Assembly: GCA_018903055.1 (NCBI GenBank)
Contig: JAHIPW010000149.1
Span: 1-11,995 of the forward strand
Direction of reading: 5' to 3'
DNA length: 11,995 nt
Origin: DRGV01 sp018903055 [NCBI: bacterium]
GTDB taxonomy: Bacteria; UBP18; UBA7526
How positions within the stretch are numbered: position 1 is the first letter of the stretch; each line of letters opens with the position of its first letter. Of the stretch, positions 1 through 11,773 are shown piece by piece. The notes beneath the pieces were generated by a model. That model was not told the DNA's origin. It did no database searches and saw nothing but the letters and a program-made list of their open reading frames with translations. The position numbers and the translations under genes were made by a program.

Positions 1-2162
<2,162 letters not shown>

Positions 2163-4481: not shown

Positions 4482-4516
4482 AAACTCCTCAGGGATTAGC
4501 GGGGAAAACAGTTAAA

Positions 4517-4556
4517 GGTTACTAGCAGTTACTAATGGTTACTAAGGGTTACCAAT
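4517..4556. repeat. Four 10-bp GGTTACTA repeats
   Basis: Four consecutive 10-bp units (GGTTACTAGC, AGTTACTAAT, GGTTACTAAG, GGTTACCAAT) occupy the gap between the acylphosphatase stop and the phosphoesterase start. A 10-bp period would put every copy on the same face of the helix, but no regulator is known. The rest of the gap holds a 6-bp hairpin (ACTGTT, loop CGT, AACAGT; about 4572-4586). Confidence 0.85.
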
Positions 4557-5791: not shown

Positions 5792-6121
5792 TCTTTCCTC
5801 ACTCTGTTCGGACACAGATTTTCACAGATGGTTACAGATTTGCACAGATCACAGATGCTGGATCCTAGATGCTTGATTCTGGATATTAGGGAATTTGGAT
5901 ATCAGGATTTGGAAATTAGGGTATTAGGAGATTAGGAACGCTTTTGTCCCCAATCCCCTCCGCCCCAGAGGGGCGAGACCTCGCCTTCGGCGGGCAGTCC
6001 CCTAATCACCAAATCCCAGTCTCCTCCCTCTGGGATCCTGAGGGTCCCATCGGGATCCGAAGGGCAATCACCGATCACTGGTTACCGATCACCGACTATT
6101 GACTATTGACTTCTTAACTGG
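5792..6121. repeat. 330-bp gene-free gap filled with repeats and palindromes
   Basis: No gene is seen. From left to right it holds five ACAGAT units (5814, 5824, 5834, 5844, 5851; period 10 bp, then 7); GGAT/ATTAGG repeats (about 5858-5936); a GC-rich palindrome cluster (5955-6064); and an ATCACCG/TTACCGATCACCG run ending in GACTATTGACTATTGAC (about 6067-6111). It separates the glycosyltransferase stop from the LOG-like start, so any promoter for the latter lies here, but I see no convincing -35/-10 pair. Confidence 0.8.
5955..6064. repeat. GC-rich cluster of overlapping palindromes
   Basis: Alternative stems include CCCCTC/GAGGGG (5955-5960 with 5968-5973), CGCCCC/GGGGCG around AGA (5961-5975), CGCC/GGCG around TTC (5982-5992), CCCTC/GAGGG (6026-6044) and GGATCC with GGATCC (6033-6038, 6053-6058). 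Its base composition differs sharply from the AT-rich gap around it. It resembles the multi-hairpin segments found inside the deacetylase-like gene. Confidence 0.7.
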
Positions 6122-7385: not shown

Positions 7386-7422
7386 CACCCCGCGATGATG
7401 CTTTGCATCATTTTGCGGGGTG
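7386..7422 (-). terminator. Strong hairpin immediately behind the tRNA-Pro CCA end
   Basis: CACCCCGC (7386-7393) pairs with GCGGGGTG (7415-7422), and GATGATGC (7394-7401) with GCATCATT (7405-7412), around a TTT loop with a two-base bulge. The stem uses two bases of the tRNA CCA end. No T-run follows, so it may instead be a processing or stabilising structure. Confidence 0.5.
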
Positions 7423-7498
7423 GTCGGGGCGACTGGATTCGAACCAGCGACCTCCACGTCCCGAACGTGGCGCGCTAAACCAACTGCGCTACGCCCCG
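7421..7498 (-). tRNA. tRNA-Pro (CGG anticodon), CCA encoded
   Basis: A complete 78-nt cloverleaf. The acceptor stem is CGGGGCG/CGCCCCG, the D stem GCGC/GCGC, the anticodon stem CCACG/CGTGG with loop TTCGGGA (anticodon CGG, reading CCG), and the T arm GCTGG-TTCGAAT-CCAGT. Discriminator A is followed by a genomic CCA (7423-7421). The C at position 1 is normal for bacterial tRNA-Pro. It is transcribed in the same direction as its protein-coding neighbours. Confidence 0.98.
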
Positions 7499-7516
7499 AT
7501 AGCTCACTTCGTTCGC

Positions 7517-7544
7517 AGAAATCAGATATCAGAAATCAGATACA
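7517..7544. repeat. Two 14-bp AGAAATCAGATAYN units upstream of tRNA-Pro
   Basis: AGAAATCAGATATC is followed directly by AGAAATCAGATACA. The run occupies the 83-bp gap between the membrane-protein stop and the tRNA 5' end, where a tRNA promoter would be expected; none is convincing. Confidence 0.75.
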
Positions 7545-9882: not shown

Positions 9883-10523
9883 CCATATTCTCCTATCAAG
9901 GGAACGAAGACACAGCCGCAGACACTGGTAGTCTTCACCTTATCTTTCTCTTTCTCCACCAAGAGCAGGGCCTGAGAGAAGGAACCACCCACAGGAATGA
10001 CCATCTTCCCTCCCTCGGCCAATTGATCAGCCAAACTTTTAGGTAATACGGGGGCTCCGGCGGTGACAACAATCCTATCGAAGGGAGCCTCCTCTTCTAG
10101 GCCTCGTGAGCCATCACCAACAATCACCTTTACATTCTTATACTCTAAATCACTCAATACTTTCTTGGCTCTTTCTGCTAAGCTTTCAAATCTCTCTATG
10201 GTATAGACCTCTTTGGAGAGTTCTGCCAGGATGGCTGATTGATAACCAGAGCCGGTTCCCACCTCCAATACCTTCTCAACCCCTTTCAATCCCAGGCACT
10301 CGGTCATTAAGGCCACCATGTAGGGCTGGGATATGGTCTGTCCCTCACCAATGGGCAGGGGATGGTCCTCATAGGCGCTATCCAGATACTTTGGCAGAAC
10401 GAACCTATGCCTGGGAACTTTGGCCATAACCTCTAAGACCTCCCTACCCTTAATCCCCCGATTGGCGATCTGGGTGGCCACCATTCTTTCTCTCAGGCTG
10501 CTAAATTCAACCTCATTCCTCAT
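9870..10523 (-). CDS. pcm: Protein-L-isoaspartate O-methyltransferase
   Basis: Repairs aged proteins by methylating isoaspartyl residues with S-adenosylmethionine, which starts their return to normal aspartate. The 217 residues hold the family blocks: the VPRHRFV region (37-43); GQTISQPYMVALM (61-73), which helps bind the substrate; the SAM motif VLEVGTGSGYQ (85-95); the acidic post-motif strand VYTIERF (106-112); and VGDGSRG with DRIVVTAGAP further on. Length is normal and no residue is missing. The ATG follows CTGGAG, overlaps the deacetylase-like stop by 11 bp, and the 3' end overlaps adenine deaminase by 13 bp, so it is the middle gene of a coupled trio. Cytoplasmic. Confidence 0.97.
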   Translation of the reverse strand: MRNEVEFSSLRERMVATQIANRGIKGREVLEVMAKVPRHRFVLPKYLDSAYEDHPLPIGEGQTISQPYMVALMTECLGLKGVEKVLEVGTGSGYQSAILAELSKEVYTIERFESLAERAKKVLSDLEYKNVKVIVGDGSRGLEEEAPFDRIVVTAGAPVLPKSLADQLAEGGKMVIPVGGSFSQALLLVEKEKDKVKTTSVCGCVFVPLIGEYGWKR

Positions 10524-11718
10524 TAAAACTCCAGTAATTGCTATGGATTCCCTTTATCTTTTTTACTATCTCTTTAACCCCGTTAGAAGTCCTCCGATAT
10601 TTATCGGAGGCAGTCGCCATAGGCGACTTACTTCTAACGGGGCTTACATCCTTACTGGGTTCCCCATCTATTTTCCCCTTAGAGAAAAAATTAAACTCTT
10701 TCCCTCGGGGACCTCGAGTCCCCTCGGGACGAGAGGCTAAAGAGTCCAGATGGGCAAGAACAGACTCGCTTAAGGCCTTTAGATTATATCCTCCCTCCAG
10801 ACAGGAGACTATACTTTTAGAGAACCCTTTCACTAAGGAGGTTAGGACTCCATATCCTTGAAAAGTGAGGCTCATTCCTCCCAAAGGATCATCCCGGTGG
10901 GCATCGAAGCCTGCGGAAACAAAGGTAATATCCGGTTTGAATTCCTTAGCGATAGGCAGGAGGATTTCTTTAAAGATGTAGACATAATCCTCATCCCCAC
11001 ATCTAGGAGGAAGAGGGAGATTCACCGTATATCCCTCTCCCTCTCCTTCCCCTATTTCTTTTATATTTCCTGTTCCTGGATAATGGGGATATTGATGGAC
11101 AGAAAAATATAGTACAGAAGGATCATGCCAGAAAGCCTCTTGTGTTCCATTTCCATGATGGACGTCCCAATCGATAATCAAGACCTTTTTTAGATGATGC
11201 TTATTTTGGGCATACTTTGCTCCCAAGGCAACATTATTGAAGACGCAGAAACCCATCCCCTTTTCTCTTAGGGCATGATGGCCTGGAGGACGAATGAGGC
11301 AGAAGGCGCTATCCAGATCATCCACCCCGTAAAGTCCGTCACGAGCGGACCACGGGGTAGGCACGTGGTCACCAAAGGTGACTTTACGTGCTACTACTCT
11401 ATCGATGGCAGAGAATACTCCGCCTGCTGCCAGGAGAGCCACTTCGAAGGATTCGCTGGATACCGGAGTATCGGAATCTAAAAATCCTCCTCCCCCTTGA
11501 CAAATCTCCCTTACTTCCTGGATGTAAGAAGGGCTGTGGATATATTCGATTTCTTTTAAGTCTGCCTTTCTGGGATTAATAAAGGTTAAATATTTAAGAA
11601 CGTTCTTCTCTTTCAGGAGGCTTAGAATGGCCTCAAGACGTTTGCTATTCTCTGGATGATTTCCCGTATCGTGTTTTAGATATTCATCTGAATAGACCAG
11701 ACCTGTTTTAGGAGACAT
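10513..11718 (-). CDS. Histone-deacetylase-family (AcuC/HDAH-like) zinc hydrolase
   Basis: A member of the arginase/deacetylase fold family, whose bacterial enzymes remove acyl groups from acetyl-lysine, acetylpolyamines or similar amides. Visible are HPENSKRL (21-28); RPPGHHA with catalytic His147/His148; IDWDVHHGNGTQ with zinc ligands Asp185 and His187; SAGFDAH with zinc ligand Asp272; and EGGYN with catalytic Tyr311. All active-site residues are intact. At 401 residues it is longer than the usual 310-370. The excess lies in three palindromic segments, encoding residues 111-131, 325-342 and 359-381, that look inserted in frame; the expected family sequence resumes after each (SAFCLIRPPGHH; EIVKKIKGIHSNYW). 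The ATG follows TAGGTG; the 3' end overlaps pcm. The physiological substrate is unknown. Confidence 0.95.
   Translation of the reverse strand: MSPKTGLVYSDEYLKHDTGNHPENSKRLEAILSLLKEKNVLKYLTFINPRKADLKEIEYIHSPSYIQEVREICQGGGGFLDSDTPVSSESFEVALLAAGGVFSAIDRVVARKVTFGDHVPTPWSARDGLYGVDDLDSAFCLIRPPGHHALREKGMGFCVFNNVALGAKYAQNKHHLKKVLIIDWDVHHGNGTQEAFWHDPSVLYFSVHQYPHYPGTGNIKEIGEGEGEGYTVNLPLPPRCGDEDYVYIFKEILLPIAKEFKPDITFVSAGFDAHRDDPLGGMSLTFQGYGVLTSLVKGFSKSIVSCLEGGYNLKALSESVLAHLDSLASRPEGTRGPRGKEFNFFSKGKIDGEPSKDVSPVRSKSPMATASDKYRRTSNGVKEIVKKIKGIHSNYWSFNEE
10578..10642 (-). repeat. In-frame palindromic segment, three-way junction
   Basis: The outer arms CCCCGTTAGAAGT (10578-10590) and ACTTCTAACGGGG (10630-10642) pair perfectly over 13 bp. 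They enclose CCTCCGATA/TATCGGAGG (10591-10599 with 10602-10610) and AGTCGCC/GGCGACT (10612-10618 with 10622-10628, loop ATA). Only two bases (10611, 10629) are unpaired at the junction. It encodes residues 359-381 of the deacetylase-like protein (SPVRSKSPMA, then TASDKYRRTSNGV), in the C-terminal tail. Confidence 0.9.
10695..10745 (-). repeat. In-frame palindromic segment, smaller three-way junction
   Basis: The outer arms ACTCTTT (10695-10701) and AAAGAGT (10739-10745) pair perfectly, followed inward by CCTC/GAGG (10703-10706 with 10733-10736). Enclosed are GGGGAC/GTCCCC (10707-10712 with 10718-10723) and TCG/CGA (10724-10726 with 10730-10732). It encodes residues 325-342, including the Arg/Gly/Pro-rich SRPEGTRGPRGKE. 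Confidence 0.8.
11328..11388 (-). repeat. In-frame palindromic segment, perfect four-way cloverleaf
   Basis: Four helices tile 61 bases with no unpaired junction base: CGTAAA/TTTACG (11328-11333 with 11383-11388); GTCCG/CGGAC (11334-11338 with 11346-11350); CACG/CGTG (11351-11354 with 11364-11367); and GTCACC/GGTGAC (11368-11373 with 11377-11382). It encodes residues 111-131 of the deacetylase-like protein (RKVTFGDHVP, then TPWSARDGLYG), between helix SAIDRVVA and strand SAFCLIRPPGHH. It is not a tRNA: there is no TTCGA loop and the acceptor stem is short. Confidence 0.88.
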
Positions 11719-11731
11719 TTGTCACCTATTA

Positions 11732-11773
11732 GGTTATCGGGTGATCGGGTTATCGGGTAATCGGGTAATCGGG
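11732..11773. repeat. 8-bp GGGTNATC tandem repeat
   Basis: GGGTGATC, GGGTTATC, GGGTAATC, GGGTAATC occupy 11739-11770, preceded by a degenerate GGTTATC and followed by GGG. It lies in the 84-bp gap between the YjbQ stop and the deacetylase-like start. Confidence 0.9.

What the first reader, a model, noticed from the sequence alone, without database searches (positions are those of the whole stretch)
11328..11388. Perfect cloverleaf palindrome inside the deacetylase-like coding sequence
Sixty-one bases fold into four helices (6, 5, 4 and 6 bp) that tile end to end with no unpaired junction base, in frame within an enzyme gene and just before its catalytic RPPGHH motif. Coding constraint alone should not yield this. 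The encoded stretch (residues 111-131) is extra relative to the family pattern as I remember it, where a helix and short loop lead straight to the strand before PPGHH. This points to insertion of a small structured element, or to repeated local template switching.
Basis: partly seen in the sequence, partly recalled or inferred. Interest (0 to 1): 0.8.

Follow-up and report, generated by a model that had tools for sequence, protein, structure and literature searches.

The report
Palindromic DNA inserted inside deacetylase gene
A bacterium of a little-known lineage carries a small, self-folding DNA repeat inserted in frame inside an intact enzyme gene, the most narrowly distributed of three different palindromic repeats found in this one gene, which makes it a good place to study how mobile hairpins add pieces to bacterial proteins.

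Summary
Window 11328-11388 pairs as described; 0 of 1000 synonymous-codon shuffles of the 23 codons fold as well. Five same-family genomes have this HDAC/AcuC-type gene without 69 nt (23 codons, about 11325-11393), so this is an in-frame insertion. The insert is two inverted copies of a dispersed hairpin, E1 (stem, AAA/C internal loop, stem; free covariation). E1 matched all six genomes held of this lineage; under stricter filters it matched five of these six and 0 of 54 others. Two hairpins (-41.3 kcal/mol) beat the cloverleaf (-22.0). A DUF4416 gene carries a 36-nt in-frame E1 insert in one genome and not in four others.

The same HDAC gene holds two more palindromic families, both polymorphic in multiples of three: E3 (four of six genomes) and E2 (two of six). 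E2 has 4-bp target duplications (24 of 58 exact; 3.4 expected) and length 3n+2 in 53 of 58 copies, so insertion preserves frame; 29 of 58 lie in long ORFs.

Best reading: non-autonomous REP/RPE-like palindromes, tolerated where they keep frame and form floppy loops. E1 lacks the GTAG/CGTC tags of known REPs; no Y1 transposase was found in the six incomplete genomes. The mobiliser is unknown. Known kind, apparently new families, unusual stacking.

The parts
11325..11393 (.). E1 insert: 69 nt, in frame, absent from the orthologous gene of five same-family genomes; codes about residues 109/110-132 (boundary can slide by 2 nt)
   Evidence: tblastn and DNA alignment with L009-L013; gap placement
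11323..11359 (+). E1 hairpin A
   Evidence: model R1, 43.1 bits; one of the sequences the model was built from
11359..11393 (-). E1 hairpin B, inverted relative to A
   Evidence: model R1, 42.3 bits; one of the sequences the model was built from
7386..7422 (-). third E1 hairpin of the window, single, abutting the 3' end of tRNA-Pro
   Evidence: found by a structure scan, then used in model R1, 37.8 bits; ARAGORN tRNA-Pro at 7421-7498 -
10578..10642 (.). E2 palindrome (13-bp terminal inverted repeat CCCCGTTAGAAGT plus two inner hairpins), codes about residues 359-381 of the same gene; present in G000 and G001; G002 and G004 are 66 nt shorter there, G003 and G005 69 nt
10698..10735 (.). E3 palindrome, codes about residues 328-341, just after the deacetylase domain (Pfam 21-326); present in G000, G001, G004, G005; G003 is 36 nt and G002 45 nt shorter there
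10513..11718 (-). host gene: HDAC/AcuC/HDAH-type deacetylase, 401 aa
   Evidence: Pfam PF00850 E = 2.3e-100; structural matches HDAC4, HDAC6, HDA15

Best explanation
The 69 nt are an inverted pair of REP-like palindromic hairpins (family E1), a non-autonomous dispersed element of this lineage that most simply inserted into the deacetylase gene after this species split from its nearest held relative. Because the insert is 23 codons without a stop in the used frame, the reading frame continues through it. The extra residues are predicted to form a disordered loop between a helix and the strand leading to the catalytic RPPGHH motif, and so are probably tolerated. Shown: the length difference between orthologues, dispersal of the hairpin, pairing with covariation, open reading frame, predicted disorder. 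Inferred: that an enzyme recognising the folded hairpin in single-stranded DNA moves it in trans, that the protein is made and active, and that the effect is near-neutral. The same gene holds two other palindromic families (E3, E2) with wider distributions, so the best overall picture is a lineage in which several families of small palindromic elements repeatedly enter genes and survive where they preserve frame.
For: Shorter gene in G001-G005 and a clean 69-nt gap. Motif CGTRAARTC-N-GACCACG: 8 hits in 5 of 6 lineage genomes, 0 for the reversed control. Covariance model R1: matches in 6 of 6 lineage genomes, 29 rows at E<=0.001; with stricter filters 5 of 6 lineage genomes and 0 of 54 others at E<=0.01. 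Covariation on 10 copies: 98.3% of cells paired (shuffled 74.6), 28 double-change cells (shuffled 7.6). Inverted pairing recurs: 8 adjacent pairs among 37 hairpins, 7 of them 3'-to-3'. A second in-frame E1 insert, 36 nt in a DUF4416 gene, missing in four orthologues. Codon shuffles 0 of 1000. AlphaFold: residues 114-126 and 128-131 pLDDT<50 while 250 of 401 residues are >=90. Insert and shorter forms of E2 and E3 in the same gene.
Against: No mobilising enzyme was identified; the Y1 transposase family gave 0 of 6 genomes, in assemblies 53-93% complete. No clear target-site duplication for E1 (at most about 2 nt). Movement is inferred from presence and absence, not observed. Most E1 copies lie outside convincing genes; only two genes have E1 in frame with shorter orthologues. 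The R1 alignment was partly chosen by pairing, which inflates, and one of its measures is weak (further pair types 15 against 11.5, reached by 25 of 500 shuffles). The genome searches scored only part of the first-look candidates (150 of 191-326 per genome, 113), and with its stricter filters also missed G002, so the 0 of 54 is not exhaustive. The insert was not checked on raw reads.
Confidence: 0.92

Rival explanations
1. Local template switching (fold-back copying) created the palindromes in place, without transposition.
For: Arms are well matched even where copies differ, as arm-correction would produce; a hairpin nested in a hairpin and end-to-end arrays of hairpins exist (G001:C65 and G005:C67).
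Against: The same motif with the AAA/C internal loop recurs on many different contigs in all six genomes of the lineage and was not found in 54 others (stricter filters). Local switching copies neighbouring sequence and would not give a shared family motif.
Confidence: 0.06
2. The structure is kept by selection as an RNA element in the deacetylase mRNA (pausing, stability or translational control).
For: Very stable fold on both strands.
Against: Absent in the five orthologues of the family; folds as well on the complementary strand (-38.7 against -38.9), as expected of a DNA palindrome; no Rfam family matched there up to E = 1.
Confidence: 0.05
3. E1 hairpins are host RNA signals at tRNA 3' ends (processing or termination) and the copy in the gene is a stray duplicate.
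For: 11 of 33 E1 hairpins lie within 150 nt of a tRNA gene, 8 of them on its 3' side, two abutting it; E2 0 of 29. These 11 fall at eight places, two of which are orthologous; no background rate was computed.
Against: 22 of 33 are not near a tRNA; the number of hairpins differs between the orthologous tRNA-Glu loci of G005 (three) and G001 (five); no run of T follows the two abutting copies as read.
Confidence: 0.15
4. Chimeric assembly joined unrelated sequence into the gene.
For: Draft assembly in 191 contigs, probably metagenomic; the contig has an odd perfect fold-back at its left end.
Against: The insert is 23 codons, stop-free in the coding frame (three of its six frames are), with intact gene on both sides; another assembly shows the same kind of insert in another gene, and two other families sit in this gene in several assemblies.
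Confidence: 0.02

Closest known systems
Rickettsia palindromic elements (RPE) and similar coding palindromes
   Same: Small palindromes of several families dispersed in one lineage and inserted in frame in unrelated genes; one tested Rickettsia protein keeps activity (passages of PMC10969869, PMC2229807, PMC6649704).
   Different: Different lineage; shorter (36-69 nt differences against 105-146 bp, PMC2229807); E2 shows a 4-bp target duplication, whereas the table in PMC2229807 marks TSD of RPE as '?'; three families are found in one gene. No RPE sequence was compared here.
REP sequences and REP dimers (BIME), GTAG and CGTC superfamilies
   Same: Hairpins of about 30-40 nt, often as inverted dimers or clusters; dimers or groups inside ORFs encode 20-30 aa (PMC3733652, abstract and sections 5, 6, 14, 15).
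   Different: E1 lacks the GTAG (2 of 37) and CGTC (0 of 37) tag in its 5' flank and has a conserved AAA/C internal loop; no Y1 transposase found; a third of the E1 hairpins examined lie near tRNA genes.
Bacterial MITEs (Correia/NEMIS, ERIC, RUP, YPAL and others)
   Same: E2: terminal inverted repeats, target-site duplication, no room for an enzyme of its own; in-frame fusions are known for several MITEs (passages of PMC2229807).
   Different: Most E2 copies are only 62-71 nt, and length is 3n+2 in 53 of 58 copies.
Coding palindromes of Nematomorpha mitochondria
   Same: Inverted repeats inside functional genes with well matched arms (passages of PMC6649704).
   Different: Those are perfect repeats of up to 142 bp per arm in animal mitochondria and, in the passages seen, are not described as a dispersed element family.

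Membership tests
REP (GTAG or CGTC superfamily) | small hairpin of about 20-40 nt in many copies | tested here: met
   37 hairpins, mostly 30-44 nt (27-67); 29 rows at E<=0.001 over six genomes, fewer than in many REP-rich genomes
REP (GTAG or CGTC superfamily) | unpaired GTAG or CGTC motif at one end | tested here: not met
   GTAG in the 5' flank of 2 of 37 hairpins and in its complement 2 of 37; CGTC 0 of 37 in the 5' flank, 1 of 37 in the 3' flank
REP (GTAG or CGTC superfamily) | dimers in opposite orientation | tested here: met
   8 adjacent opposite pairs (15 of 37 hairpins), 7 of them 3'-to-3'
REP (GTAG superfamily) | RAYT / Y1 transposase in the genome | tested here: not met
   PF01797: 0 of 6 genomes; it rings in 5 of 14 controls; genomes 53-93% complete
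RPE (as a class of coding palindromes) | in-frame insertion in a conserved gene with orthologues that lack it | tested here: met
   HDAC E1 69 nt, DUF4416 E1 36 nt, HDAC E2 66 or 69 nt and E3 36 or 45 nt
RPE (the Rickettsia families themselves) | sequence homology to a named RPE family | not tested
   no RPE sequence was compared; shared class, not shared descent, is claimed
MITE (for E2) | terminal inverted repeats | tested here: met
   13-bp ends CCCCGTTAGAAGT/ACTTCTAACGGGG, 96.2% of cells paired in 20 copies
MITE (for E2) | target-site duplication | tested here: met
   4 bp: 24 of 58 exact against 3.4 in shuffles, 0 of 2000 shuffles as high; lengths 2, 3, 6 and 8 show nothing; length 5 shows a weak excess of matches (86 against 66.7; 1 exact)
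MITE (for E1) | target-site duplication | tested here: inconclusive
   filled and shorter HDAC sites allow at most about 2 nt
HDAC/AcuC-type deacetylase (host gene) | domain and catalytic motifs intact | tested here: met
   Pfam PF00850; H147 H148 D183 D185 H187 D272 invariant among 29 sequences; their catalytic roles are recalled, not from a call

The most novel reading that the evidence does not exclude
This lineage hosts a set of protein-invading palindromes. E2 in particular has been shaped so that element length (3n+2) plus its 4-bp target duplication is a multiple of three and two frames on each strand are mostly open: a mobile element selected to be harmless inside genes. The enzymes of the lineage are being lengthened by successive waves of different palindromes, as the deacetylase gene records in layers (E3 and E2 before E1).
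Probability: 0.55. Interest if true: 0.75.

Novelty: new variant of a known kind. Interest (0 to 1): 0.6.

Why it matters
In-frame coding palindromes are described most fully in Rickettsia, also in Wolbachia and, as MITE fusions or intragenic REPs, in a number of other bacteria (passages of PMC10969869 and PMC2229807; section 15 of PMC3733652). Here is a lineage with three such families, orthologues with and without each insert, layers in a single gene, a measurable target duplication and a frame-preserving length. That makes the question of how mobile DNA contributes new protein segments directly testable, including whether an element can itself be selected for being harmless in genes.

Tried and rejected
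Cloverleaf as the favoured fold: rejected, the two-hairpin fold is about 19 kcal/mol better. Known RNA family: of 11 Rfam matches up to E = 1, none lies on the insert; six of them fall on a perfect palindrome at the contig's start. Plasmid-borne element: no blastn match in the plasmid collection at E <= 1. Phage-borne: an exact E1 pattern had 0 matches in viral contigs; an exact E2 pattern had one contig, where it sits at the 3' end of an ORF. RAYT as mobiliser: PF01797 in 0 of 6 genomes. GTAG/CGTC tag: not present. E1 inside other ORFs: 11 of 33 hairpins overlap some open frame of at least 90 codons stop to stop, but only the two HDAC hairpins and the DUF4416 copy are convincing; the 403-aa TPR-type ORF (L162) has no orthologue test and may be chance. 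Whether the tRNA-Pro copy at 7386 has filled or empty orthologues was looked at and left undecided. E3 target duplication: suggested by flanks but confounded by simple repeats around many copies. Naming the phylum: not achieved; the held genome G003 has a contig of the same length (31160) as JAUWYL010000016.1, 'bacterium isolate CSMAG_2709', and the taxonomy look-up did not accept the name.

Full report
WHAT WAS CLAIMED AND WHETHER IT IS THERE. The gene around them runs on the - strand, 10513-11718, codes 401 aa and is a histone-deacetylase-type protein (Pfam PF00850, E = 2.3e-100). The 121-nt region folds better than dinucleotide shuffles on both strands (z -4.4 and -3.1); the bare 61-mer gives z -2.5. 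With 5 more bases on each side the favoured structure is two adjacent hairpins (-41.3) rather than the cloverleaf (-22.0).

IT IS AN INSERTION. The gene was found in all five other genomes held of this lineage; in each, the tblastn match to the window protein breaks at about residues 109-111 and resumes at 132-133, and residue and DNA alignments show a 69-nt gap at the same place, between AIDRVV (or close variants) and DDLDSAF. L038 also lacks it, but it comes from a contig of the same length as that of G003 and is not counted as independent. The insert occupies about 11325-11393; the boundary can slide by 2 nt. It is stop-free in the coding frame and in three of its six frames in all.

IT BELONGS TO A DISPERSED FAMILY (E1). 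The insert holds two hairpins in opposite orientation that share CGTAAAGTC...GACCACG. A looser motif gave 8 hits in 5 of 6 genomes of the lineage (none in G002) and none for the reversed control. An alignment of ten hairpins shows a 7-bp stem, an AAA/C internal loop, a second stem and a loop; 98.3% of cells pair and 9 of 12 pairs show changes on both sides. Some of these ten were found by a scan that required pairing, so these figures lean upward; the motif hits did not require the outer stem to pair. The covariance model R1 matched all six genomes, 66 rows at E<=1 and 29 at E<=0.001. Under stricter filters, 5 of 6 lineage genomes and 0 of 54 others matched at E<=0.01. E-values are rough because calibration is short, and only part of the first-look candidates was scored (150 per genome, 113), so weak copies can be missed in either group. 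A third copy lies in the window at 7386-7422, against the 3' end of a tRNA-Pro gene.

ANATOMY OF E1. Of 37 hairpins examined (weaker matches left out), 15 form eight adjacent opposite pairs, seven of them 3'-to-3'. Arrays tile end to end: five hairpins beside tRNA-Glu in G001, three at the orthologous place in G005. Eleven of 33 hairpins lie within 150 nt of a tRNA gene, eight on its 3' side; for E2 it is 0 of 29; no background rate was computed. The tags of the two known REP superfamilies are absent (5' flank: GTAG 2 of 37, CGTC 0 of 37). A second in-frame case supports the first: in G005 a DUF4416 gene carries 36 extra nt made of E1 sequence, and the orthologues of four other genomes lack these 36 nt. 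Two of those four matches (G003, G000) contain one stop codon; in G000 it stands at the C-terminal end in the alignment, and I did not place the other. G001 had only a partial match there and was not used.

TWO MORE FAMILIES IN THE SAME GENE. Downstream the same gene holds E2 (10578-10642) in G000 and G001; at that place G002 and G004 are 66 nt shorter and G003 and G005 69 nt shorter. It also holds E3 (10698-10735) in G000, G001, G004 and G005; there G003 is 36 nt and G002 45 nt shorter. All these differences are multiples of three. By distribution E1 is confined to one species, E2 to one genus, and E3 is wider; because G003 lacks E3 while its genus mates G004 and G005 have it, E3 needs at least one loss or more than one gain. 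E3 has 25 matches in the window's genome by pattern with up to 3 mismatches, 6 in G001, 2 each in G004 and G005, 0 in G002, G003 and 54 other genomes, and none for the reversed control.

E2 IS A FRAME-KEEPING MOBILE ELEMENT. E2 has 13-bp ends CCCCGTTAGAAGT/ACTTCTAACGGGG and two inner hairpins. Model R2 matched all six lineage genomes and, more weakly and with elements of 80-102 nt that share the ends, G025 and G006 among the 35 outside it. Among 58 distinct copies in hand, 24 are flanked by identical 4-bp duplications against 3.4 expected in shuffled flanks (0 of 2000 as high); lengths 2, 3, 6 and 8 show no signal, length 5 a weak excess of matches with one exact case. All 24 begin with C or T and end with A or G. 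Fifty-three of the 58 have length 3n+2 (53 of 54 by model boundaries). A 3n+2 element plus a 4-bp duplication adds a multiple of three. Twenty-nine of 58 lie in open frames with at least 150 residues outside the element; deleting one or two bases inside the element leaves 4 or 8. Twenty-four of these 29 use the same codon phase, which in the copies reads NPVRS...TSNGV or close to it. Hosts include an RluD-like pseudouridine synthase, an M24 peptidase, an amidase, Memo-AMMECR1 (in the linker) and EPSP synthase (inside the domain). Copies are related by descent, and some are orthologous, so these counts are not independent events.

HOW IT MOST LIKELY WORKS. E1, E2 and E3 are taken as non-autonomous mobile palindromes. 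For E2 the target duplication supports a transposase acting in trans. For E1 no duplication is evident, which would fit an enzyme acting on folded single strands, but no Y1 transposase was found in the six incomplete genomes, so the mobiliser is unknown. Survival in the deacetylase is explained by frame and place. In the predicted structure the segments with pLDDT below 50 are 114-126 and 128-131 (in E1), 337-343 and 345-350 (overlapping only the end of E3, residues 328-341) and 358-374 (most of E2, residues 359-381), while 250 of 401 residues have at least 90. The model matches HDAC4, HDAC6 and HDA15 structures, and the conserved His and Asp residues are invariant in the 29-sequence alignment. 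Activity was not tested.

WHAT IS KNOWN. Passages read in PMC10969869, PMC2229807 and PMC6649704 describe Rickettsia palindromic elements inserted in frame, one enzyme keeping activity, and in-frame fusions of other MITEs; the abstract and sections 5, 6, 14 and 15 of PMC3733652 describe REP dimers inside ORFs coding 20-30 aa and REPs without a known transposase. PMC2635572 was seen in passages only. The original RPE papers were seen only as references. Six literature searches, of which I saw listings and starts of abstracts, listed nothing that I recognised as these three families. The kind of thing is therefore known; what appears new is the families and their lineage, the presence of three in one gene, and the length rule of E2.

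Noticed in passing
window 1-102: Perfect fold-back palindrome at the very start of the contig, overlapping the 3' end of the DNA ligase gene (74-2125); probably an assembly artefact at a contig end. It draws low-score miRNA matches in Rfam.
   Followed up: partly
window 11732-11773: Tandem GGTAATCG/GGTTATCG units just upstream of the deacetylase gene; other short simple repeats at 2218-2245, 4513-4556, 5875-5938 and 7516-7542.
   Followed up: no
L263 (G000:C106): Three E3 copies in tandem with a 43-nt period; many E3 copies sit inside ACTCCGAACT-type simple repeats.
   Followed up: partly
L154 1364-1580 (G001:C65) and L121 1496-1606 (G005:C67): Arrays of E1 hairpins ending against tRNA-Glu, five against three hairpins at orthologous places, one hairpin with another nested in its loop.
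   Followed up: partly
L307 2297-2354: An E2-like palindrome of 58 nt in a contig of the viral collection, at the 3' end of a 352-aa ORF.
   Followed up: partly
L221, L228, L234 (G025) and L222 (G006): Longer elements with E2-like ends in two genomes outside the lineage, so the E2 ends are more widespread than E1 or E3 appear to be.
   Followed up: partly
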